This document shows, piece after piece, positions 3,739-63,204 of a DNA stretch of 64,000 bases (its first letter is position 1; every line of letters starts with the position of its first letter). The DNA is from Zopfochytrium polystomum. Taxonomy: Eukaryota > Chytridiomycota > Chytridiomycetes > Chytridiales > Chytridiaceae. The position numbers and the translations under genes are program-made. The stretch spans positions 372,001-436,000 of the forward strand of contig JAIVFJ010000018.1 of NCBI GenBank assembly GCA_025765615.1, given 5' to 3'. Under the pieces are notes generated by a model that was given only the letters and a program-made list of their open reading frames with translations, was not told the DNA's origin and did no database searches.

Positions 3739-5087
3739 CAGATAGTGGAAGCAAGCAACAAAGGCGGGAGAGTGGGTGGGGGGGTGGCGAAGAACCGTTC
3801 ATAGGCCAGCCACCCAACCCACACAGCAAACTTACTTCGCCCACCACCAGAGCAGAAAAAGCGACGACTTTCTCCAAGAAGGGCGATGCAAGAGCTGGCT
3901 CCGCCCGCGCTTGTGCCGTTCGCGTTCGATTCCCTCCTCCTCCTTGCATTATCATTAGTTCGCGCTTTCTTCAGTTCCTCTTCCTTTTCCATTTCTGGGG
4001 GTTTTTTTTTTTTTTTTTTTTTTTTTTTGGCAGTCTCTTGCCGCTCGCGGGCTCAGCCCCGCCCTCGGCGCTTGCGTACGTTGCAAGCTGCTGCTTCCTT
4101 CTTTTTTTTTTTGGCTTATTTTATCACTTTTATTTTTTTTCTTCTTTTTAGTTTCCCCTTCCGAGTTTTTTTTCCCTATCCAGCCGAACCAACCCCTTTC
4201 CATCCCACAATCAAAGAGAACAAACCGCGGGGGTGGGAAATGAGGCGAGTGTGCTTTGTGACGTTGCGTGGCGCGGACTCCGCCGCCCGAACAAGAGGCC
4301 CTTTGCGCTTGGGTTGGTGGGAAGGGGAAGGACAGAAGGAGGAGGAGGGATGGAGACCTGATTAGACGGGAAGGGAGGGGAGAAGGCGCCAGTAGAAACT
4401 ACAAGCCAATAAAGACGACGGGGAGGGGCGGGGATGACGAAGAAGCAGCACGAAGAGACGATGTAAAGGCAAGGCAAAGCTGCCGAGGAAAGAAAGGAAG
4501 CGAACCACAAAAAAAAAGAAAAAAATTGGAGCCACGAAAAAAAAAAAGCAAACAAAAGGTCACAAGGAGGGGCGGTCAAAAGGACGGTGCGAAAAGAAGT
4601 TGGCAAGAGAGGAAAGTTGAGCAAGGATTTTGGCAGGCCGGCCACATCTTCGTGGTGAAGGCCGGCAATAGTGGGGGTGGTGGTGGTGTGTTGATGAGGT
4701 GTTCAGGGCAAACCATAACAAAAACAAAAGGGTGGGTCAAGAAAAAGGAAACAAAGAAAATAAAAAGGGTGGAGGGGTGCGGGTAGCGAGCGAAAACGGG
4801 ACACGGAAGCCGCGTCAACAGTTGCCACCCATACTTCGCGCCCCCTCTCGTCTTTGACATCCATCCCCTTGGGGATTCTACCCCTCAAAACGCCACTGAG
4901 CGCGTCTTTGCGAATCCTTTGCAAACTTCCGCCCCGTTCCTACACGTCACAAACGTCCAACCCCGCCCAACCCCCTTGCTCAAGAGTAAGGAGTCAAAGA
5001 AGCAAACGAAGCAGGCCCACAACAAAAGAAAAATGAAAAGGATCGGATCTAAAAAAAACTCATTATCAGGCTGCTCAGAGCGCGTGA

Positions 5088-17083: not shown

Positions 17084-17692
17084 CGTGATGCCCGTGTTTG
17101 TGCAATCCTCGCGCTTTTGCACAATCGATCTTCATTTAGACCGCAATGCGGTTTTCTTGACCGCGTTCCTTTTTTCAGTTGCGTTCACTCTCGCCCTCGC
17201 CGCGTGCCTGGTGGCTCGAGCTCGAGCTGCTGTTTGGAAGCGGCGACCTGCGCCCCGCCGCAGGCGGCAACCCGTTGCTGGAGGAGGCCGCCGACCCACT
17301 GCTGAGGTGGTGCCTGCGGCTGCACGTCAAAGGGTGGGATGAGCCCCTGGATGCGTGCGTTCCACGACCGCGCGGAGCAGGAGGGACGAGAGGCCCAGGA
17401 TGCGCAAGGAGGGGCAGTGGGAGCGCGAGCAGGCGTGGTACGCTCCAAGATCAAAGCGGATGGGTCATGAATGGTGTGAAGAGAGCGTTCGCGGTGGTAG
17501 GATCAGGCGGTGTACAGTATGTAGGGGTACAACTGGCTTTGGAGGGGGCGAAAGCCGCGTCTTACTTCGTTGCGGCCGACATAACCAAAGGTTCTGGCGA
17601 ATGGCTTCCCGCCAAAGAGGCCAGAGGGAAAGAAAAAAATTGCAAAAAGAAAGGAAAAACTCAAACAAAGAAACGACTCGGCACCGAAACGT
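17084..17692. other. GC-rich interval without an assignable gene
   Basis: Composition resembles the housekeeping part of the window, and several overlapping open frames run through it. One (from about 17140, +) contains a hydrophobic stretch FLFSVAFTLALAACLV, but no single frame shows a domain or a convincing exon chain. It may be a gene remnant. Confidence 0.35.
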
Positions 17693-18146
17693 TGATCGAA
17701 CGAACTAACGAACAATCGAACGATAGAGCGAACGGCACAGGGGTCAAAGCATCCTGTAAGACCCGAGAGCGAGATCCGCAACTCCTACCCTGCATGATGA
17801 GCTCCCCTCCCCCCATCGATTGGTTCCCCACCCCCACTCCTCCCACTCTCTCGCTTAATAAGAAAATGGCAACGGCACTGACCCCCGCGGGTGATTGATT
17901 TTTTGCTTCTCTGGTTCTGATCAAGGTCGCCGCATCGTCCAGATTCTCCAGAGTACGACCATCTGATAACTTTGCGCCTGGGTGAGATGGCTCTTCCAAG
18001 AAAACAAAGGCGAGACGTGTCACCACACTTTTGGGCCAAAATGAAACCACCACCCATTCCTTCGACGTGTCACCGTGATGCCCCCAACCAACCCTCCATT
18101 TCCCCACTTCGACATACTTCATCCGGCTAACGTTGAGTCCAGATCA
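17693..18146 (+). promoter_or_regulatory. Conserved upstream module, copy 1
   Basis: This non-coding stretch ends about 70 bp before the 18217 start codon. The same ordered words recur upstream of the TIR-NACHT-ankyrin gene: GATCGAACGAAC-like runs, ATCCTGTAAGACC (17751), CCTACCCTGCATGATG, GTCCAGATTCTCC (17938), ATCTGATAACTTTGC, and TTCATCC...GTTGAGTCCAGAT (about 18118-18144). Order and spacing are similar while the following coding sequences are not. A shared promoter or 5' untranslated region is the simplest reading. Confidence 0.65.
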
Positions 18147-18216: not shown

Positions 18217-19136
18217 ATGGCATACAAAGAAGACGGAACACTTGATTATGATAATTTGTGCAGGATTCCTGACCCCACAAACTTGACATTGGTGCAACTG
18301 GCGTCTCTCTATAGAGCTAGGGTCACAAGCAGCAACAATCTTCACCCATATGACAAGCTTGCCATTAAGCAGCACATACTCAGTTGCTTCTTCAAACATG
18401 CCATGAGATACTTTAACGAATCGGACGATAGTCTCATGAGAGGCTACCTTGAAGGCTGGACGGAGACACAGCTCACTACGTCAATGAGGGTTGGAATATT
18501 GGGTGACGAGCTCAAGACGCTATTCACACCGGACACTGTGTTATACTTTAAGACGAACTCCAACAATTGGTCGCTGTCGAAAGTCACTTTCCACCGCGAA
18601 ATTCAGTCTTATGTAACTGGCAAAGGCTTGTTTGTTTATGCGAGATCGAACAATAGCGAATTGAACTATTCTGTGCAAGAAGTCCCAGCGTCTGCAGGAC
18701 AACCAAGCAAGACACACAGCTGTGTATTGCTGGGTCGAGGTTCTATGATAGCTGTGCTCGATCAATGCTGGGAGCCATCCCTGTTCCTTGATGAAGTGAT
18801 GACTGACATGGACGGTATTATCGGTGTGACTGAAGGCCCTCTATCGAATCTTGTAGTCGATAGACTTGCTGAACTCTCTGCGCTGACGGCTGAACTCTCT
18901 GCGCTGACGGAGGCTTTTGCGCTCGAGGTTTTAGAACATCGCTTGAGTCTTCCTATGCTGATCCGAGACCTTCTACTTTTGTACAGGATGCAAGGTTGAG
19001 TCCCGTTGATGTGCTGCCTTCTTCTGCAAACACTGGTGGTGGTTCTAGCAATGTTGCTTCGTCGGATCAGGTGCAGGGAAATCCAGGAAGCCGTCGTCGT
19101 GGTCTCTTTGGGCTCTTTAGGAGGGCGCAGAAGTGA
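18217..19136 (+). CDS. Unknown protein with RRRGLF basic tail
   Basis: Exon 1 (18217-18927) encodes MAYKEDGTLDYDNLCRIPD and a globular-looking body with no family I recognise. It ends in two seven-residue AELSALT repeats. An intron at 18928-18986 (59 nt, GTTTTA donor, ATGCTGAT branch-like, TTTTGTACAG acceptor) leads in frame to exon 2: a Ser/Gly-rich linker and the C-terminus GSRRRGLFGLFRRAQK. Total 286 aa. This tail is almost the same as the end of the ankyrin receptor at 63.2 kb (NRRRGLFALFRRLQE), and the two genes also share their upstream module. There is no signal peptide or membrane span. The donor is not a strong consensus, so that junction is the least certain part; the tail frame itself is clear. 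Confidence 0.72.
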
Positions 19137-19385
19137 TCCTTCGTTTCTTTAACTCACTTTTTGTTGACAAGTGATATCTTCAAATGGATCTTTTTCCCCT
19201 CAGCTTGTGAAAAATTTTGTGCAACTTTCGCGAACTTTGAACTCTCTATTTTTTAGAGGGTCTTCGAGTACTGATGGGACTTGTGTTTTTTTTTATTTAT
19301 TGCCTGTCCTTGTATCTGGGGCTTGTGTGTTTGACTGACTGAGATTGTCTTTGTGCGTCTGGACTCACGATGGGGTTGTGGGAGC
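19137..19385. other. 3' flank of the 18.2-kb gene
   Basis: AT-rich, with a T-run near 19288. It forms the left part of the insertion target of the retroelement, whose duplicated GGAGC is at 19381-19385. Confidence 0.6.
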
Positions 19386-19738
19386 TGTCAGGAACAGGGC
19401 AGGACAGGACAAGGCAGACAAGGAACTGAGAGGAGTGATGATTGTATTGGAAACAATAATTCACTTGAGGGATGGGACAGGTCCCCCATCCCCCTTTTAT
19501 ACCTTTTGAGAGTCTTCCTTGTCAAGACTCAAAGAAAGTTCCAGAAAGAGCAATTAGTAATACAATGATACCAATGATACCAATGACAACAAGACAAGTC
19601 AGGAAAGCAAAGAAGGTTCCAGAAGGTTCCACAAGGTTCCATGAAGGAATGTTCTAGAAGGTTCCAGAAGGTTCCAGAAGGTTCCATGAAGGAATGTTCT
19701 AGAAGGTTCCAGAGGTTTCCAGAGGGTGATTCATAACA
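19386..19738 (-). repeat. 3' LTR of the chromodomain element
   Basis: 353 bp, starting TGTTATG and ending CCTGACA on the element's strand. It reads the same as the 5' LTR throughout. Confidence 0.95.
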
Positions 19739-19755
19739 TCATCTCCCCCTTTTAG
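19739..19755 (-). promoter_or_regulatory. Polypurine tract
   Basis: Reads AAAAGGGGGAGATGA on the element strand directly before the 3' LTR. It overlaps the stop codon of the pol frame, which lies at 19741-19739. Confidence 0.75.
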
Positions 19756-21334
19756 GCCTCTTCTGCAACTTGGTGGGGTACCTGGTCTTGAACTTGAGCA
19801 GAAGGTCTTGGCAGTGAGTGAGGTTTGACTCAGGTTCCCAGGTGTTGTCAGCATCTGAGTAACCCTTCCACTTAACAAGGAACTTGAGTGTCCTTCCAAA
19901 CCACTTGGCATCTAAGATTTGTTCAACCTCAAATTCCTCTTCACCTTCTACCTCAACTGGAGGAGGAGGAGGAACAACTCTGCCTGGAATGGAATTGGCC
20001 ACAAACTTCTCCAAAAGGCTGACATGGAAAACTGGGTGGATCTTCATGGATGCAGGGAGATCCAGCTTGAAGGTGACTGGATTGATTTGCTCCAAGATCT
20101 TGAAAGGTCTCAACTTGAGGTTGTCTAGCTTGGGACTTGGTCTTTTGGACTGCAAGTTCTTCCTCATGCCTGGCCAGTAAAAGTCTCTGGAAACAAGCTC
20201 ATATGTCTTGTGCTCTCCTGGGTGTCCAGCTGTTGCTGCATCATGCCTTGTCTTGAGTATCTCAAGTTTTTCCTCTTCTTGGCTGATTTGAATCTTGTGA
20301 GGCTTGGGGTCCTTGGAAATAGCATAGGCCCACACACTCTCAGGAAGCAGTGAAAGGTGTGTCTTGGGTGGTGGGGTGAAACCATCTCCCCCTTCAGGTG
20401 CAAGGTCTGTCCTTCTGTGCTCATCAGCAGTGGGGCTTGAATTGTTGACTGGGAACTGTGATTCTTGAATCTTTGACTGAGGGTTCTGTTCTTGGCAAAG
20501 ACTGTGAGCTGTGGAGCTTGAATCTTGAATTTGGACTGTGAACTGTGGTACTTGAAGCTTTGACTGTGGGTTCTGTGAACTACAGACTTGGCCATGACTG
20601 TGAGCTCTATGAGCTGTGCTGGAATCTTGACTATGAACTGTGAACTGTGAAACTTGAATCTTGGCTGGGATCTGTGAGCTGCAGGCTGATACTGGAGCTG
20701 TCATTTGTGGTTGACCTTGGATACTAGGCTGAGAGCCTTGAATCAGGGACTTGAGAGCATGAGACTTGGAGGCTTGACTTGAGTTTTGGGTGACTGTTCC
20801 AATTGGTGGAGGTTGGACTTGACCAGTGACCCAATCAATGGCAGGGTTCTGGGCTTGCAGCCATGGTAATCCCAGGATGACAGAGAATGTGGGTGAGCCA
20901 AGATCCAATACTTCCAGATTGACCATGGATGGTGGAAAGTCTTGGATGTGGAGGTTTAGCTTGGTTTCATGGCTGATTTCCTTGAACAGAGCATGATTGG
21001 CAAAGTGGACCTTGAGGGGTGTGGATTTCTTGATCGTAGGAATGGCACAAGACTTGGCAAGGGTGGCATCAATGATGTTGCAGGATGATCCAGAGTCTAT
21101 AAGGGCCTTGGTTGTGATGGTTGACTTGGGTGAGAGTTGAATCTTGACATCCATGGTGAGTTGGTGGGGCTTGGAATCTGAGGTGTTTGTGGTGCTGGTG
21201 GTGGTGATGAAACAGGGGCAGCTTGGAGGAGGGTCCAGGGAATTGCCCCTCAGTGAGCCTGGACCTGGGAGTTTGGGTGCTTCTTCCTTGGGCAGTCCTT
21301 GACAGCATGCTCCTTGGAGCCACAGTAAAAACAC
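19739..21334 (-). CDS. Internally deleted pol: protease-like, integrase tail, chromodomain
   Basis: An open frame of about 531 residues in the -1 frame relative to gag, entered by frameshift near 21271. A retropepsin-like part has ALIDSGSSCNI and the ILGLPWL motif. Then comes a Ser/Gln-rich spacer with repeated VPQFTVQIQDSS-like peptides. The sequence then jumps to an integrase zinc-finger remnant (HDAATAGHPGEHKTYELV...DFYWPGM), the integrase C-terminal region ending IHPVFHVSLLEK, and a chromodomain (FEVEQILDAKW...FLVKWKGYSDADNTWEPE). Usual full pol is over 1,000 residues. The junction preserves the frame, so the shortened protein could still be made. The chromodomain, if functional, would bind methylated histone tails and steer insertion. 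Confidence 0.88.
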   Translation of the reverse strand: MFLLWLQGACCQGLPKEEAPKLPGPGSLRGNSLDPPPSCPCFITTTSTTNTSDSKPHQLTMDVKIQLSPKSTITTKALIDSGSSCNIIDATLAKSCAIPTIKKSTPLKVHFANHALFKEISHETKLNLHIQDFPPSMVNLEVLDLGSPTFSVILGLPWLQAQNPAIDWVTGQVQPPPIGTVTQNSSQASKSHALKSLIQGSQPSIQGQPQMTAPVSACSSQIPAKIQVSQFTVHSQDSSTAHRAHSHGQVCSSQNPQSKLQVPQFTVQIQDSSSTAHSLCQEQNPQSKIQESQFPVNNSSPTADEHRRTDLAPEGGDGFTPPPKTHLSLLPESVWAYAISKDPKPHKIQISQEEEKLEILKTRHDAATAGHPGEHKTYELVSRDFYWPGMRKNLQSKRPSPKLDNLKLRPFKILEQINPVTFKLDLPASMKIHPVFHVSLLEKFVANSIPGRVVPPPPPVEVEGEEEFEVEQILDAKWFGRTLKFLVKWKGYSDADNTWEPESNLTHCQDLLLKFKTRYPTKLQKRPKRGR

Positions 21335-22173
21335 AGTCCCTGCTGGGCCCTCCTTGTTTTCTCCTCTTGGCTCAGAGGACCCTTAGGAAGTGTCTCAACT
21401 GCATCCACTTGCATGGGTTCAGGAACTGTGAGAGCTTGAGGAACTGGGGTAGGTCTTGATGTAGTTCCTACTTGTCTTTGCTTCAGCCTCTTGGAGTAGA
21501 GTCTGTTGTCAATCTTGATGGCAAGGAGAATGTACTCTTCCAAGGTCTCAGGGATGTGCAGAGACTGGGAGAGCATGTCTTGGATAGACTCATGGAGACC
21601 ATCATGGTACAGCTCCATCAGAGCTGCATCATTGTATCCAGAGTCTCTGGCTAGTTGCTTGAATTGGTTGGTGTAGGCCACACAAGATTGCTTTCCTTGC
21701 TTGATATGCTTGAGCTTGGATCTTGCTGTCCAAGATGCGTAGGGGTCACCAAAGGTAGCTTCCAGCCCCTCCCAGAGCTCTTGCAGGGTGGTGGGTGTGC
21801 TTGGGAGAGATCTGTACCATGATTGAGCTTGACCAGACAGGAGGGTGCTTGTGAAAAGAACCTTGACTTGCTCACTGGGAAATCTTGAAGGTTGGAGAAG
21901 GATGACATTCTCCACAGTGGCCATGAAGTTCCTAAGGTCTTTGGCCAGCCCAGTGAACTTGTCAGGGCTGGGAACCTTGGGCTCTCTTGCTTGGTTGGCT
22001 TGAGGCAGGGGAAGAGCTTGATGTTCTTGTTGGTGAAGTTGTTGTTGAAGCTGGTGCTGCTGGTGAAGGACTTGTTCTTGAAGTTGGTGTGTCTGTCTTG
22101 AAAGGGCTTGTAATTGGTCCATCAAGGCTTGGAAGGCAGTTGCATCAGGGAAGGTGTTGTTTGGGTCAGACAT
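21250..22173 (-). CDS. Gag capsid-nucleocapsid protein
   Basis: A 307-residue protein starting MSDPNNTFPDATAFQALM, with a Gln-rich coiled N-terminus and a capsid-like helical region (FTGLAKDLRNFMATVENV...AQSWYRSLP). It ends in one CCHC zinc knuckle, CFYCGSKEHAVKDC (C-x2-C-x4-H-x4-C). The frame is intact. The heptamer CCCAAAC (plus GTTTGGG, 21271-21277) lies in gag phase as C CCA AAC a few codons before the stop, inside the gag-pol overlap. This is the canonical arrangement for -1 ribosomal frameshifting. Confidence 0.92.
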   Translation of the reverse strand: MSDPNNTFPDATAFQALMDQLQALSRQTHQLQEQVLHQQHQLQQQLHQQEHQALPLPQANQAREPKVPSPDKFTGLAKDLRNFMATVENVILLQPSRFPSEQVKVLFTSTLLSGQAQSWYRSLPSTPTTLQELWEGLEATFGDPYASWTARSKLKHIKQGKQSCVAYTNQFKQLARDSGYNDAALMELYHDGLHESIQDMLSQSLHIPETLEEYILLAIKIDNRLYSKRLKQRQVGTTSRPTPVPQALTVPEPMQVDAVETLPKGPLSQEEKTRRAQQGLCFYCGSKEHAVKDCPRKKHPNSQVQAH

Positions 22174-22200
22174 GATGGCAGAGAGTAGTGGGAGAGGGTG

Positions 22201-22211
22201 AAGTGAATTAT
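22201..22211 (-). promoter_or_regulatory. Self-primer binding site
   Basis: Two bases inside the 5' LTR the element strand reads ATAATTCACTT. Its exact complement AAGTGAATTAT occurs in the LTR (22294-22284) 35 bp downstream of the start of TATAAAA (22329-22323), where the transcript should begin. This is the Tf1 self-priming arrangement (11 paired bases), and no tRNA-complementary site is evident. Confidence 0.75.
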
Positions 22212-22213
22212 GA

Positions 22214-22566
22214 TGTCAGGAACAGGGCAGGACAGGACAAGGCAGACAAGGAACTGAGAGGAGTGATGATTGTATTGGAAACAATAATTCACTTGAGGGA
22301 TGGGACAGGTCCCCCATCCCCCTTTTATACCTTTTGAGAGTCTTCCTTGTCAAGACTCAAAGAAAGTTCCAGAAAGAGCAATTAGTAATACAATGATACC
22401 AATGATACCAATGACAACAAGACAAGTCAGGAAAGCAAAGAAGGTTCCAGAAGGTTCCACAAGGTTCCATGAAGGAATGTTCTAGAAGGTTCCAGAAGGT
22501 TCCAGAAGGTTCCATGAAGGAATGTTCTAGAAGGTTCCAGAGGTTTCCAGAGGGTGATTCATAACA
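22214..22566 (-). repeat. 5' LTR of the chromodomain element
   Basis: 353 bp. Contains a TATA box (22329-22323) and tandem GGAACCTTCT/GAACATTCC motifs in its U3 part, which may bind activators; heat-shock-element-like spacing (nGAAn/nTTCn) is visible but untested. Confidence 0.95.
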
Positions 22567-22571
22567 GGAGC

Positions 22572-56918: not shown

Positions 56919-57040
56919 GTTTTCCCAGCCGACGACACAACCTCCAAAAGAAAATGGGATAAGGAAACAAAAAAGAAGAAAAAGAAAGAAGAAGAAGAAG
57001 AAAAAGGACAAAGACAACTCAGCCCCAACTCACGATCCAT
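56203..57040. other. Intergenic, T- and A-tracts, no gene
   Basis: (TTTTA)n with a T-run at about 56487-56526, a T-run at about 56891-56918 and a GAAGAA tract near 56975-57005. A frame at 56587-56796 has no supporting features. Confidence 0.55.
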
Positions 57041-57283
57041 CAAACGAACGAACCCATCCAACGATCGATCGACAAAGGTCGAAACGAATCCCGTAAGATC
57101 CACAGGGGGGTGATCCACAAATCCTACCCTGCACGATGCGCTCTCCTCCTCCCCCATGATCCGTACTCCTCCCGCTACATCCGCCGATCAGAAATAGGCG
57201 GCAAATCCTCTGCACCCCACTCATTTGTTGCAACGTTGCGACGCCCAATCTCACCTCTATTCGCTTCCCCACATACTTCATCC
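57041..57283 (+). promoter_or_regulatory. Conserved upstream module, copy 2
   Basis: Contains CGAACGAAC, GGTCGAAACGAATCCCGTAAGATCC-like sequence (about 57078-57100), CCTACCCTGCACGATG (57124) and, at its end, CCCAATCTCACCTC...CCACATACTTCATCC. The same ordered words are in the modules at 17.7-18.1 kb and directly downstream. Confidence 0.6.
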
Positions 57284-57770
57284 AAACGATCCATCGAACG
57301 AACAGACCAAACGGTCCATTGAACAAACGGACAAACTAACGATAGATCGATCAAACGACAGAAAGGACAAGGTTCGAAACATATCCTGTAAGACCGCACC
57401 TATCCACAAGTCGGACCCCTCCTCCCGCATCATGCGTACCCCTCCCCCTCCATCAGTTGATCTGGCAGCAGATTGACCAGGCCGTTCGAAAAGAGACTCC
57501 CTTTCCTGATTCCTCACTCCCTGCTTCCAATCCCCCAGCAACAGTTGGATTTTGCATCCTTCGTCTGAACATGGTCTCTGCATTGTCCAGATTCTCCCAA
57601 GAACAACGATCTGGTAACCTTGCACCCTGGTAAGATGGCATATCCACACAACAACCACCAGACTCGTCACCACAATGCCCATACCCACTTGTTTGATGTG
57701 TTGTTGCAACACCCAACCTCACCTCCATTCCCCACCCCGCATATTCATCCCACAAATGTTGAGTCCAGAT
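57284..57770 (+). promoter_or_regulatory. Conserved upstream module, copy 3
   Basis: Tandem to copy 2. Words shared with copy 1: GAACGAACAGACC-like run, ATCCTGTAAGACC (57385), GTCCAGATTCTCC (57585), ATCTGGTAACCTTGC, CTGGTAAGATGGC and CATCC...GTTGAGTCCAGAT (57746-57770). It ends about 170 bp before the receptor start codon. Confidence 0.65.
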
Positions 57771-57837: not shown

Positions 57838-57937
57838 GTAAGAATTCATATTTGCTTCATTTTTCCTCTGCGGGTCTTCTGCTTGTGGGTTGACGGCTGG
57901 TGGCTTTCTATTTTCCTAATATTTGTTTCTAAACCAG
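57838..57937 (+). other. Probable intron in the 5' leader of the receptor gene
   Basis: CTG|GTAAGAATTC at 57838 and TTTCTAAACCAG ending 57937, two bases before the start ATG at 57940. Both signals are strong; splicing in the leader would put the upstream module in the transcript or just ahead of it. Confidence 0.55.
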
Positions 57938-57939
57938 TC

Positions 57940-60900
57940 ATGTCTATAAGCACTTCTGGCTTTGTGCTGCTCAACGCTCAAAAGCACTTGGTGAAAGTCC
58001 AGTACCTTGACGATCCTGCTGTTCAGGTCCTTGAGCTTGATCATCCCACTTTGCAGAATTTGACTGAGAAGGTAGTGCGCCCACTCACGCAACATCCATT
58101 CTGACATCCATATCCACAGATATACAAGAATGCAGATGCTTTTCTCGGCCAAGACATTGAAGTTTATTTCAAGTCTGGCCCTGACCTGGAATGTGTCAGC
58201 CAAGCTCCCACTTATGTCCAGAACTTGATTGAGGGATCATCTTTTCCCAACCTGGCCCGTTTTCAGATTCACCTCAAGAAGGGCAAAGGTGCTGCAGTTG
58301 CCAAGGCTCTTCCAAGTGTTCCACCCATTGGCTCTGCTTTGTCCAAAGTCTATGACTGCTTCCTTTCGTACCAGTAAGTGGCCTCACAGTGGTGTCACTG
58401 CATCTCCACAATTGACTTGGACATTTTCAGGTGGGACAGCAAAGATACTGTGAAGAAGATATTTGAAGATTTGACAAAGAAGCATGGATTAGATGTGTGG
58501 TTTGATGAGAACAATATGAGTGGGTCCATCAACCAGGCCATGGCGGAAGGGATTGATTCAAGCAAAGTGTTTGTCCCTGTGCTCACTCTCGACTACCAAG
58601 TGAGCAGTCTGTTGGATTTGTATTTCACTTCAACTCTTACTCACTCTGGGACCAGAAATCTGACAACTGCCTGGTGGAGATAAGATATGCCAAGGATCGC
58701 AAGAAGCCAAAAGTCCCAGTGCGCCTATTGCAGCAGGGAGAGGATGCTCAGGGAGAAGTGTTTGCAATCACTGCAGCGTAAGTTGTTTTTGCAATTTGGA
58801 ATCCACGTGGACTCTGCTGACATTTTCTCAGTTTGCTGTATGCTGATTTTGCTGGCAAAGTTCCTGGATCCCCTGGATGGGATGGTCAGATGGCATTCCT
58901 TGTGAAAGAGATCAAGCTGCGTCAGAGTCAGACACCTGTCCCTGTGCCAGCTGTTGTTCAGCCACCTGTTGATCAAGTGGAACTTTGGCTCAAGCCAGTA
59001 GATATTGCTGTTGATGCTGAGAGGCACAAGAGTGCCTATGTGGATGGAACAAGGAAGTTTTATCTGGACAATGTGCACTCTTGGCTCCAGTCTGCCAATG
59101 TGGGAAATGTGCTGTGGCTGAATGGTGGAGCTGGTCTTGGAAAGTCTGTGATTGCGTGGCTTGTCAGCCAGCATCTGCCTGCCAAGTATGTGTTGGGGTC
59201 GATATTCTACTGCAGGCATGATGATGTGCAGAAGAGCAGCCCCCAGCAAGCTGTTGCCACCACCATCTGGAATCTTTGCAGTGTGCTTCCTTCCTTCAGG
59301 AAGTTTTGTGATGCTGCTTGTGCTGAAGATGCCAAGAATGGAGATTCCAGTATTCTCAAAGACCCTGAGGTTGCCTTCAAGCACATTGTTGTTGAAGGAT
59401 TGAAGCAATTGGACTCCAACGACAAGATGAAGAATCTTCTGCTGATTGTTGATGCATTGGATGAATGTGGAGCTCCTGACAGCAATGAAAGGAAGAAACT
59501 GCTGGATCTCCTTTTGCAGGCAAAAAGGGAACTGCCTCCCTTTGTCAGAATATTCACCACTGGAAGGCCTGAGCAGGATGTGTTCCACACCATGATGAAG
59601 ATGGACTCAATGGTCCTTGTGCCAAGTGATAAAGCCAACAAGAACGACATGAACCTATTTGTTGAAGCCACTCTGTCCAAGTCATTTCCTGGTGGTGTGC
59701 TGAGTCCAGATGATGTGAAGACAGTGTCTGCTGAGATCTATGAGAGATCTTCTGGCATTTTCCAGTTTGCTCGCATTGCCTGCGATGAGCTGGCCCAAGT
59801 TCCAGCAGACAAAGTTGTCAGCACCGTCAAGGGATTTGGTGCTGGCATTGATGGAGTGTATGAGCAGTTTTTCAGATCCAGCAAGGTCAACACCAACAAC
59901 TTTCGACTTGTGATGAAGGTTGTTCTTGCTGCAAAGGAGCCCATTCCTCAAGATGTCATTGCTGAGCTCCTGGGTGTTGCACCTCATGTGGTTGGCCAAG
60001 TTCTTGTTGAGGCAAGTGCTAATTCTATTTAGTTTCATTTTTATGACCAATATTAACAGTATTGCAGATTCATCGTATTCTGGATGTCAGTGACCAAGGC
60101 AAGGTCAAAGTGATGCACAAGAGTCTCTCAGATCACCTTGTTTCAAGCACGAGATGTTCAGACCGCCAGTTCTTCATTGATATTTTGGAAGCAAGAAATG
60201 AAATTGCTAAGTCCTGTTTGAGGATTATGCTGCAGCACTATCAATCAGTTGAAAACAAGTATGAAGCCCTGAATGGGACTGCTGGGTTCATCCCTGAGAA
60301 TGCCACAGCCCAGTATGCCTTCAGGTTTTGGTTTGACCACCTGGATGAAATTGGGCACGCTGTGGTTGCCAAATGGGCTGAGTGGAAGGAGTTTGCTGAT
60401 GTGGACAAGTTTGGGCCAGCAGCACTTTGTGTGGGAATCATGTGGAAGTCAGAACAGCTTGTTCAGAGTGTTCTTGCTGCAGGACATGGCACGACACTTG
60501 TCACAAGGGCCAAGCAACTAAGAGTCTTTTCAAACCTGCTGTATGAGGCTGCAAAGAGAGGATTGACATCAGCATGCAGATCTTTGATTGAGGAAGGAGG
60601 TGAAGATGTTGATTCCAGAGGCATTAGTTGGGGTGACAAGATGGAATATGGTGAAGAGAATAGGACCCCTTTAATGGTTGCAGCAATGAACGGACATTCA
60701 CAAACTGTCCTTGCCCTTTTGGAGTTGGGGGCTGACCACAGCCTTGTTGATGCAGATGGATGGACAGCCTCCAACTATGGCTGCAAAGCTACTTTTGATA
60801 AATGGATGAACGAATTGCAAAAATCTGTAAGTTATATTACTTTTTTTTTTTTTTATTGTGGCTGATGAATTCTCACAAACAGCAACAGACAAACACAGAT

Positions 60901-63204
60901 CCCAAATGGCAAATTTTTCAAACCATTCATGATGAACAGCAACTTCATGAATGGTTTCTTGCAAATAACAGCAGCCTTAGTGAAGTTGACTCGACTGGAA
61001 GGACACCACTCCATGTTGCCTCTGAAAAGGGCCATTTGGACGCTGTGAAGTGGTTGCTTCAGGAGGGTGCCACTGTGGATGCTAAAACCAAGGACAAGTC
61101 AACATCCCTCCACTTTGCATCCCTGAACGGCCATTTGGAAGTTGTGAAGTGGTTGGTGCAGCATAGTGCCAATGTGGATGCTAGAAACATCAACAAGGCA
61201 ACACCACTCTACATTGCATCTCAGAAGGGCCATTTGGAAGTTGTGAAGTGGTTGGTGCAGCAGGGTGCCACTGTGGATGCTGAGAACAAGGACAAATGGA
61301 CACCACTCCATAGTGCATCTTGGAATGGTCATTTGGAAGTTGTGAAGTGGTTGGTGCAGAAGGGTGCCACCGTGGATGCTGAGGATGTGGACAAGCGGAC
61401 ACCACTCCACAGTGCATCTCATCATGGCCATTTCGAAGTTGTGAAGTGGTTGGTGCAGCAAGGTGCCACCGTGGATGCTGCGAACAAGGACAAATGGACA
61501 CCACTCCACTTTGCATCTAATTACAGCCATTTGGAAGTTGTGAAGTGGTTGGTGCAGCAGGGTGCCACTGTGGATGCGAAGGAAGAGAACAAGTGGACAG
61601 CACTCCACCTTGCATCTCAGCACGGCCATTTGGAAATTGTGAAGTGGTTGATGCAGCAGGGTGCGACTGAAGATGCTGAGGAAGAGGACAAGTGGACACC
61701 ACTCCACTTTGCATCTTGGAACGGCCATTTGGAAGTTGTGAAGTGGTTGGTGCAGCAGGGTGCCACCGTGGATGCTCAGGATGTGGACAAGTGGACACCA
61801 CTCCACTTTGCATCTCAGAACGGCCATTTGGAAATTGTGAAGTGGTTGTTGCAGCAGGGTGCCACTGTGGATGCTGAGAGCAAGAACAAGTCAACACCAC
61901 TCCACCTTGCGTCTTTGAACGGCCATGTGGAAGATGTGAAATGTTTGGTGCAGGAGGGAGCCACCATGGATGCTCAGAATGTGGACAAGTGGACACCACT
62001 CTTTGGTGCATCTCAGAACGGCCATTTGGAAGTTGTGAAGTGGTTGGTGCAGCAGGGTGCCACCATGGATGCTGAGAATAAGGACAAGTGGACACCACTC
62101 CACAGTGCATCTTCTCACGGCCATTTGGAAGTTGTGAAGTGGTTGGTGCAGCAGGGTGCCACCGTGGATGCTCAGGATGTGGACAAGTGGACACCACTCC
62201 ACTATGCATCTCAGAACGGCCATTTGGAAGTTGTGAAGTGGTTGGTGCAGCACGGTGCCACTGTGGATGCTGAGGAAGAGGACAAGTGGACACCACTCCA
62301 TTTTGCATCGCAGAACGGTCATTTGGAAGTTGTGAAGTGGTTGGTGCAGCAGGGAGCCACCATGGATGCTCAGGATGTGGACAAGTGCATACCACTCCAC
62401 TATGCATCTCAGAACGACCATTTACAAGTTGTGAGGTGGTTGGTGCAGCAGGGTGCCACTGGCGATGCTGGGGAAGAGGATGAGTGGAGATCACTCCACA
62501 TTGCATCAGGGAACGGCCAATTGGAAGTTGTGAAGTGGTTGGTGCAGAAGGGTGCCACCGTGGATGCTGAGGATGTGGACAAGCGGACACCACTCCACAG
62601 TGCATCTCATCATGGCCATTTCGAAGTTGTGAAGTGGTTGGTGCAGCAGGGTGCCACTGTGGATGCTGAGACCAAGGACAAGCGGACTCCACTCCATTTT
62701 GCATCTCAAAACGGCCATGTGGAAATTGTGAAGTGGTTGATGCAACAGGGTGCCACTGTGGATGCTGTGGAAGAGGACAAGTGGACACCTCTCCATTTTG
62801 CATCTAGGAACGGTCATTTGGAAGTTGTGAAGTGGTTGGTGCAGCAGGGTGCCACCGTGGATGCTGAGAACAAGGACAAGTCAACACCACTCCACATTGC
62901 ATCTGGGAACGGCCATTTGGAAGTTGTGAAGTGGTTGGTGCAGCAGGGTGCCACTGTGGATGCTGAGGAAGAGGACAAGTGGACACCACTCCACTTTGCA
63001 TCTGGGAACGGCCATTTGGAAGTTGTGAAGTGGTTGATCACTCTGAAAGCAAAGGCCTTTGCTGTGAACTCTTATGGTGAAAGACCTTTGGATATTGCCA
63101 AAAGGTATGGCCACAAGGACATTGCTGAATTCCTCGATGGGCAATTTCCCTCAGGCAACCGTCGTCGCGGCCTCTTTGCGTTATTTAGGAGGTTGCAGGA
63201 GTAG
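57940..63204 (+). CDS. TIR-NACHT-ankyrin receptor-like (NLR/STAND) protein
   Basis: Exons 57940-58071, 58120-58373, 58431-58599, 58656-58777, 58832-60011, 60068-60826 and 60883-63204 join in frame to 4,938 nt, 1,645 aa. Residues 1 to about 118: unknown N-terminal domain. About 120-222: TIR domain (YDCFLSYQW, DVWFDENNMSG, VFVPVLTLDYQ, DNCLVEIRYA; E193 sits where the NADase glutamate of TIRs is found). NACHT: Walker A GGAGLGKS (324-331), Walker B LLLIVDALDE (428-437), FTTGRPEQDV. Then a helical region, one or two separate ankyrin units, and from about 908 twenty-one 33-residue ankyrin repeats plus a degenerate last one, ending NRRRGLFALFRRLQE. The plan matches innate-immune STAND receptors: ligand-sensing repeats, ATP-driven oligomerisation, TIR output. 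TIR output is rare in fungi. The exon 5/6 intron has a GC donor. No signal peptide or membrane span, so cytosolic. Confidence 0.9.
60012..60067 (+). other. GC-AG intron of the receptor gene
   Basis: Exon ends GAG and the intron starts GCAAGT, the usual form of a GC donor. It ends ATTGCAG and is 56 nt, like its neighbours. Two GT sites a few bases upstream would also keep frame but match the donor consensus less well. Confidence 0.6.
60988..63066 (+). repeat. 21 tandem 99-bp ankyrin-coding units
   Basis: Each 99-bp unit encodes one ankyrin repeat of the form DKWTPLHFASQNGHLEVVKW-L-VQQGATVDAE. Most differ at only a few codons. Two-unit blocks near 61365-61470 and 62554-62660 are almost the same at DNA level, 12 units apart. 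The period is a multiple of three, so unit gain or loss keeps frame. Confidence 0.95.

What the first reader, a model, noticed from the sequence alone, without database searches (positions are those of the whole stretch)
17693..18146. Unrelated genes share the same upstream non-coding module
Ordered words (CCTGTAAGACC, CCTACCCTGCA-GATG, GTCCAGATTCTCC, GTTGAGTCCAGAT) recur with similar spacing upstream of the 18.2-kb gene and, in two tandem copies, upstream of the TIR-NACHT-ankyrin gene (57041-57770). Coding bodies differ. This suggests co-regulated members of one family, or modular shuffling of coding cores behind a fixed 5' region.
Basis: seen in the sequence. Interest (0 to 1): 0.85.

Follow-up and report, generated by a model that had tools for sequence, protein, structure and literature searches.

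The report
Immune-receptor promoter on a foreign gene
In a chytrid fungus, a small gene of unknown function carries the upstream region and the C-terminal end of a TIR-type immune-receptor gene family around a core from an unrelated family, so it looks like a natural core swap that may share the receptors' gene control.

Summary
The window lies in the 80-Mb genome of the chytrid Zopfochytrium polystomum (or a very close relative). The module is the 5' region of an amplified subfamily of TIR–NACHT–ankyrin NLR genes: 17 of 19 merged genome stretches found with it start such a gene. It also heads three genes without that core: the gene at 18.2 kb (gene A), a disrupted copy of gene A on contig C67, and a PB1–NACHT–WD40 gene on C549.

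Gene A's core (about 220 aa) belongs to another multicopy family that my two protein searches found only in this species. Its last ~50 codons, however, are the C-terminal end of the ankyrin NLRs (RRRGLFGLFRR). So gene A has both ends of an NLR gene and a foreign middle. On C67 the order is module–A core–module–NLR–tail. Relative to C67, the window lacks 5,454 bp, which removes the NLR body and joins the A core to the tail.

Co-regulation is plausible but untested. Most module copies are ordinary paralogy. Gene A's function is unknown, and I saw no sign of purifying selection on it.

The parts
17693..18146 (+). 5' module of gene A (single unit); subtype shared with both C67 copies
   Evidence: of aligned columns, gaps excluded, about 94% to the C67 copy before the A pseudogene, 83-90% to the module of the C67 NLR, 65-74% to the other proximal NLR modules; gapped blastn to the C67 A copy gives 86-98% by piece
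17500..17692 (+). further upstream stretch, also homologous to the sequence before the C67 NLR module
   Evidence: alignment (window 17500 onward against C67_201125 position 4292 onward)
18217..18927 (+). gene A exon 1: about 220-aa core of a second multicopy family
   Evidence: 34-41% aa identity to relatives without stops on C34, C87, C211, C165, C244, C143, C18:333461
18928..18986 (+). predicted 59-nt intron of gene A (donor GTTTTA, acceptor TTTTGTACAG lying in former NLR coding sequence)
   Evidence: the only GT/GC-AG pair in the scanned region that yields protein P0001; not shown by transcript data
18969..18970 (+). 3' fusion junction: left side matches the end of the A core on C67 (205290), right side matches the NLR tail on C67 (210745)
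   Evidence: no microhomology seen by eye at the join
18987..19136 (+). gene A exon 2: C-terminal tail of the ankyrin NLRs (...RRRGLFGLFRRAQK, stop)
   Evidence: 18970-19385 is 93.5% to the C67 NLR tail plus 3' flank
57034..57283 (+). module unit 1 of the window's TIR-NACHT-ankyrin gene
57325..57770 (+). module unit 2 (tandem copy)
57838..57937 (+). likely 5'-UTR intron just before the start codon (GTAAG...CCAG)
   Evidence: read from the sequence; inferred, no transcript data
57940..63204 (+). TIR-NACHT-ankyrin NLR gene with an unassigned N-terminal part of about 110 aa, ending GNRRRGLFALFRRLQE
   Evidence: NACHT/NPHP3_N and ankyrin; TIR_2 at C18:430426-430605; C-terminus; exon joins not worked out

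Best explanation
The module is the 5' regulatory/5'-UTR region of an amplified TIR-NACHT-ankyrin NLR subfamily in Zopfochytrium. Gene A is a chimera: a copy of that 5' region came to lie before a gene core from an unrelated family, and a deletion of about 5.5 kb then removed the neighbouring NLR's own module and body and joined the A core to the end of the NLR's coding sequence. The result is probably transcribed under NLR-type control and, if the predicted intron is spliced, ends in the NLR tail. Shown: the homologies, their order on C18 and C67, and the position of the junction. Inferred: direction of the event (deletion on C18), promoter function of the module, co-regulation, and any role as an NLR partner.
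For: In 17 of 19 merged module-bearing stretches the alignment to the window's 57-kb copy runs on through the start codon into an NLR homologous to the window's; the two without are the gene A locus and C549. 16 of the 17 have a TIR_2 match and 15 of the 17 an NPHP3_N match close downstream. Gene A's core matches another family and nothing in Pfam at E up to 1. Its tail matches NLR C-termini: 7 matches including itself; 5 of the other 6 were read and follow ankyrin repeats (by eye; the C67 one by Pfam), one was not printed. C67 has module, A core, module, NLR and tail in a row, and its two breakpoints (205290, 210745) abut in the window. In an unrooted tree of second-half modules, A, the C67 A copy and the C67 NLR group with support 1.0; in the first-half tree the same group has 0.73. 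C549 shows a separate joining of the same 5' region to a PB1-NACHT-WD40 gene. The four words are among the best conserved 13-base islands: 13 windows at 0.88 or more in each half, against 95% permutation values of 7 and 9.
Against: The 3' junction is seen at one locus of one assembly; C67 lacks it. The intron donor is weak, and without splicing the frame ends at 18999 without the tail. Differences between A and the C67 pseudogene are spread evenly over codon positions (14, 15, 19 of 227, 225, 224), so A may be drifting. The best single conserved island is not significant on its own (permutation P 0.085 and 0.093). Duplicated DNA alone could explain the shared upstream region without any selected promoter function.
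Confidence: 0.8

Rival explanations
1. The module is only duplicated DNA (segmental duplication hitch-hiking with NLR copies) and has no regulatory role; gene A is a decaying chimera without function.
For: Upstream DNA that does not look like promoter is also well conserved between close paralogs (interstitial block 89% over 979 bp, then 78% over 599 bp, C18:510-511 kb vs C18:495-497 kb). No codon-position bias in A versus C67. The C67 copy is a pseudogene.
Against: Gene A has an open 711-nt exon 1. In 20 gene starts the module lies in sense close before the start. Several short islands are conserved above permutation.
Confidence: 0.35
2. Gene A and an NLR form a two-gene pair with shared control, like het-S/NWD2, and sharing of the tail lets the two proteins assemble.
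For: On C67 the A core ends about 0.3 kb before the NLR module. On C165 and C244 an A-core gene without stops lies about 6 kb before a TIR/NPHP3_N match (on C165 the NLR was read and is kin, but has no module within 2 kb upstream; C244 was not read). Both window genes end in RRRGLF[GA]LFRR.
Against: The tail search gave no match at the other A-core places. In the window the pair is 39 kb apart. Only 3 of 18 other core-matching places lie within 10 kb of a TIR_2 or NPHP3_N match in the lists, in a genome rich in NLRs.
Confidence: 0.15
3. The module is a transposable-element piece (such as an LTR or MITE) that landed before several genes.
For: Copies on many contigs; TEs are common nearby. Three half-copies lie 0.9-1.6 kb before a proximal NLR module rather than before a start. 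Four short matches (C14, C161, C470, C12; 45-124 bp) lie outside the module loci; they fall in the repetitive GAAC/A-rich part of the query and were not looked into.
Against: 17 copies are carried by plain NLR paralogs through the start codon. The retroelement repeats nearby are different sequences. Target-site duplications and terminal repeats around the module were not systematically searched for.
Confidence: 0.04
4. The chimera is an assembly artefact.
For: The 3' junction occurs in one contig only, and the NCBI protein record lies on a contig of the same length, so it is not independent.
Against: The 5' junction (module to A core) is present on C67 too, with about 6-12% divergence. The 3' flank continues collinearly with C67 for 416 bp and again beyond a retroelement.
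Confidence: 0.05

Closest known systems
Chimeric genes made by deletion between neighbouring genes, and promoter capture (general; recalled)
   Same: Parts of two gene families joined in one gene, with the donor's promoter kept
   Different: Here both ends of the NLR gene are kept and only its middle is replaced, and the same 5' region was joined to at least two different cores
NLR diversity and shuffling in fungi (NACHT-WD40/ANK with varied N-termini; PMC4986451, PMC12258605, passages read)
   Same: NLR genes with variable parts and expanded families
   Different: The shuffled unit is the non-coding 5' region plus a short tail; the new core has no NLR domain. The 2014 survey found no NLR hits in chytrids; the 2025 survey gives numbers starting at one in Chytridiomycota
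TIR-NLRs of Chytridiomycota (reported, as stated in a passage of PMC9815663)
   Same: TIR domain before a NACHT in a chytrid
   Different: A shared 5' module is described here; this genome gives 85 TIR_2 matches, 79 over the cut-off
het-S/NWD2 gene pair (PMC3321046, PMC4344463: listings and starts of abstracts seen)
   Same: A small gene that shares a short motif with an NLR, adjacent to one on C67
   Different: No HeLo match in Pfam; an amyloid motif was not searched for; the shared motif is at both C-termini and arises by fusion

Membership tests
NLR (TIR-NACHT-ankyrin): window gene at 57.9-63.2 kb | NACHT-type NTPase domain | tested here: met
   NPHP3_N E 6.6e-26, NACHT E 1.1e-6
NLR (TIR-NACHT-ankyrin): window gene at 57.9-63.2 kb | TIR domain | tested here: met
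   TIR_2 35.7 bits at C18:430426-430605, over cut-off 28
NLR (TIR-NACHT-ankyrin): window gene at 57.9-63.2 kb | C-terminal repeat array | tested here: met
   ankyrin E 1.9e-216
NLR: gene A | NACHT/NB-ARC domain | tested here: not met
   no Pfam family at E up to 1
NLR: gene A | 5' region of the NLR subfamily | tested here: met
NLR: gene A | C-terminal tail of the NLR subfamily | tested here: met
   84% to the C67 NLR, 61-66% to five others, one of them not read as an NLR; presence in the protein rests on a predicted intron
A-core family (about 500-aa frames) | about 220-aa core alignable end to end | tested here: met
   34-41% identity; 37-39% to P0002-P0004
A-core family (about 500-aa frames) | long N-terminal part before the core | tested here: not met
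   gene A starts at a Met just before the core; most but not all relatives read have the long part
het-S/NWD2-type pair | small gene adjacent to the NLR | tested here: inconclusive
   adjacent on C67, 39 kb apart in the window
het-S/NWD2-type pair | HeLo or other known effector domain in the small protein | tested here: not met
   no Pfam match; structure model too poor to use (pLDDT 55)
Active shared promoter | co-expression of gene A and the NLRs | not testable with these tools
   no expression data

The most novel reading that the evidence does not exclude
This fungus runs an NLR 'chassis': a fixed 5' region (and sometimes a fixed C-terminal tail) into which unrelated cores are placed by repeated recombination, so that new cores are at once expressed with, and possibly tethered to, the immune receptors. 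Gene A would be an accessory or decoy protein using the NLR tail to join NLR assemblies.
Probability: 0.15. Interest if true: 0.75.

Novelty: new member of a known kind. Interest (0 to 1): 0.5.

Why it matters
It gives a traceable case of how an immune-receptor locus makes a new gene: receptor 5' region, foreign core and receptor tail, with a probable pre-deletion arrangement (C67) still present in the same genome. If gene A is expressed with the NLRs, it makes the idea testable that NLR upstream regions act as ready-made platforms for new immune-related genes in early-diverging fungi, where surveys have reported absent or small NLR repertoires.

Tried and rejected
Chance similarity: rejected by 500 dinucleotide shuffles and by exact-word searches of the whole genome for two of the four words. 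Whole-gene duplication followed by divergence of the coding body: rejected, because A's core aligns to another family. Module carried over from the A-core family: nine of the ten A-core loci L048-L057 (L050 left out, its printed frame equal to that of L049) gave only four matches of 24-46 bp, best E 0.016. Module as a feature of all such NLRs: rejected, because a related NLR on C165 has none in the 2 kb read upstream. Structure of the A core: the AlphaFold model from four sequences had mean pLDDT 55, so no fold search was made. A block of about 1.5 kb between distal and proximal modules was first thought to be a third gene behind the module; it is shared with C18:438247 and C145:159942, and at C18:438-443 kb long minus-strand open frames run (669 and 608 aa, only weak coiled-coil-type Pfam matches below their cut-offs in the first), so it looks like a fragment of such a frame.

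Literature: searches for Zopfochytrium (7 papers), for fungal NLR terms (12), for chimeric NLR genes with promoters (4) and for TIR+NACHT+Chytridiomycota (2). The listings and starts of abstracts were read. Passages were read in PMC4986451, PMC12258605 (plus its section 12), PMC9815663 and PMC9926174. None of these listings showed a title or start of abstract that reports this module or gene; that is a statement about these searches only.

Confidence went from 0.82 to 0.80, and that of the TE rival from 0.03 to 0.04, because of the last two points.

Full report
Identity of the window. The ORF at 18217-18999 has one database relative, P0001, 98% identical over 94% of the ORF: a hypothetical protein of Zopfochytrium polystomum on a 541,123-base contig. 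The window's own contig C18 has that same length, in a genome of 80.16 Mb in 761 contigs. So this is that chytrid fungus, by inference.

The observation. The similarity between 17.69-18.15 kb and 57.03-57.77 kb is real and well above chance. The 57-kb copy holds two tandem units, the 18-kb copy one. Each exact word occurs once in each region: word 2 lies in unit 1 and words 1, 3 and 4 in unit 2 of the 57-kb region, so the strict order there is 2, 1, 3, 4.

What the module is. Genome searches with both copies gave 15 and 34 matches (lower bounds). Merged, they form 19 stretches. In 17 of 19 the alignment to the 57-kb copy runs on through the start codon and the gene start is homologous to the window's TIR-NACHT-ankyrin gene (contexts printed, whose output was cut for one locus). 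Independently, 16 of these 17 have a TIR_2 match and 15 of 17 an NPHP3_N match close downstream; C18:83 kb lacks both and C145 the second, and the NPHP3_N search scored only 150 of 231 candidates. Ankyrin repeats were checked by Pfam for the window gene and the C67 gene and read by eye before four more tails, not in all 17. The C67 stretch holds a further module before the disrupted A copy. The two stretches without an NLR-ankyrin start are gene A's and C549's. So there are 20 module-headed gene starts: 17 NLR, gene A, the C67 copy of A, and C549.

Besides these there are three distal half-modules of the A type on C18:511.7 kb, C18:496.9 kb and C19:5.6 kb, lying 0.9-1.6 kb before proximal NLR modules. 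A search with the C67 NLR module gave four more short matches (C14, C161, C470, C12; 45-124 bp) in its repetitive part; they were not followed. Exact words 4 and 2 occur 9 and 7 times in the genome, all in module-bearing loci; reversed-pattern controls gave 0.

Gene A is a chimera. Its core, residues 1 to about 223, aligns at 34-41% with a second multicopy family on C34, C87, C211, C165, C244, C143 and C18:333461. The protein searches returned relatives only from the same species (one and three proteins; only the 7,994 candidates sharing most words were scored), and Pfam has no match. Its last ~50 residues match C-termini of the ankyrin NLRs: C67 84%, C18:475205 66%, C18:505026 65%, C622 63%, C291 62%, C18:157260 61%. 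Five of these six were read and follow ankyrin repeats; the sixth (C18:157260) was not printed. The window's own NLR ends GNRRRGLFALFRRLQE and matches more weakly (36% over 56 residues, E 4.9e-4).

How it arose. C67 carries, in order: module, A core (interrupted by an inserted repeat with AGGGT on both sides, and with further frame breaks), module, NLR, tail. Window 18969 corresponds to C67:205290 and window 18970 to C67:210745. The window is therefore like C67 minus 5,454 bp that hold the second module and the NLR body. The flank from the tail on is 93.5% identical for 416 bp and resumes beyond a retroelement (93.0% over 313 bp). The tail reads in frame with ankyrin repeats in the NLRs read, so an NLR is its natural home and a deletion on C18 is the simplest event; this direction is inferred. 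Splicing 18927 to 18987 is the only GT/GC-AG solution that gives P0001, using an acceptor inside former NLR coding sequence. Its donor is weak and it is unproven.

Kinship of modules. In the first-half alignment (14 rows; gaps excluded), A is 94% to the C67 A copy, 90% to the C67 NLR, 87-90% to the three distal copies, and 65.5-69.8% to the eight other units. In the second-half alignment (19 rows), it is 94%, 83% and, for the 16 other NLRs, 68-74%. In unrooted trees, A, the C67 A copy and the C67 NLR group with support 1.0 (second half) and 0.73 (first half, where the three distal copies are next). So the A-type module is a subtype of an NLR 5' region.

A second swap. C549 shares unit 1 (82% over 215 bp) and upstream DNA with NLR loci, but its gene is PB1 (Pfam E 1.6e-6 on a hand-spliced sequence), NACHT and WD40 (Pfam E 4e-150). 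The shared part ends 257 bases before its start codon. In gene A the part shared with NLR modules ends about 70 bases before the start.

Is the module functional? The number of windows at 0.88 or more is 13 in each half, against 95% permutation values of 7 and 9, but the single best window is not significant (P 0.085 and 0.093). Against function, an interstitial block that does not look like promoter is also well conserved between close paralogs. Promoter activity and co-regulation are inferences.

Is gene A functional? Unknown. Differences to the C67 pseudogene are 14, 15 and 19 at codon positions 1, 2 and 3 (of 227, 225, 224), which is no sign of purifying selection, though C67 may carry most of them. 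A poor structure model gave no lead.

Literature. A 2014 survey reports no NLR hits in chytrids (PMC4986451, passages). [quoted passage not shown] PMC9815663 states that TIR domains were reported in NLRs of Chytridiomycota (passage). The large repertoire here (85 TIR_2 matches, 79 over the cut-off; 150 NPHP3_N matches scored) is notable, but TIR-NLRs in chytrids are not new.

Verdict. Most of it is paralogy of NLR 5' regions. The part worth keeping is that two different non-ankyrin cores sit behind the same 5' region, and that gene A keeps both ends of an NLR.

Noticed in passing
19386-22570: Ty3-type LTR retrotransposon on the minus strand (gag 21250-22173; protease, integrase zinc-binding and chromodomain in 19739-21334; no reverse transcriptase match in these two frames), terminal repeats identical over 300 nt (19386-19685 and 22214-22513), so a recent insertion in gene A's 3' flank.
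   Followed up: partly
L002/L004, C67:203.4-204.7 kb: The C67 copy of gene A is split by an inserted element that shares the LTR repeat of the window's retroelement (95% over 305 bp), with AGGGT on both sides, plus frame breaks.
   Followed up: partly
L067, C549:11500-18300: A PB1-NACHT-WD40 gene behind the TIR-NLR 5' region; the other large NACHT frames listed outside the module loci were not found by the module searches.
   Followed up: partly
L055/L079, C165:12-19.3 kb (and C244): An A-core gene without stops lies about 6 kb before a TIR/NPHP3_N match; on C165 it is a relative of the window NLR without the module, C244 was not read. Possible old linkage of the two families.
   Followed up: partly
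L068-L078; C18:438247-443200, C145:159942-160811: A fragment of a long minus-strand open frame (coiled-coil-like by weak matches below cut-off) is carried inside the upstream DNA of several NLR loci and C549.
   Followed up: partly
whole genome G000: Large TIR/NACHT repertoire for a chytrid: 85 TIR_2 matches (79 over the cut-off) and 150 NPHP3_N matches scored of 231 candidates.
   Followed up: no
L017, C145:167666-170977: Near-identical (99%) copy of the window NLR's 5' region at a contig end; its first exons show a frame difference in the translation.
   Followed up: no
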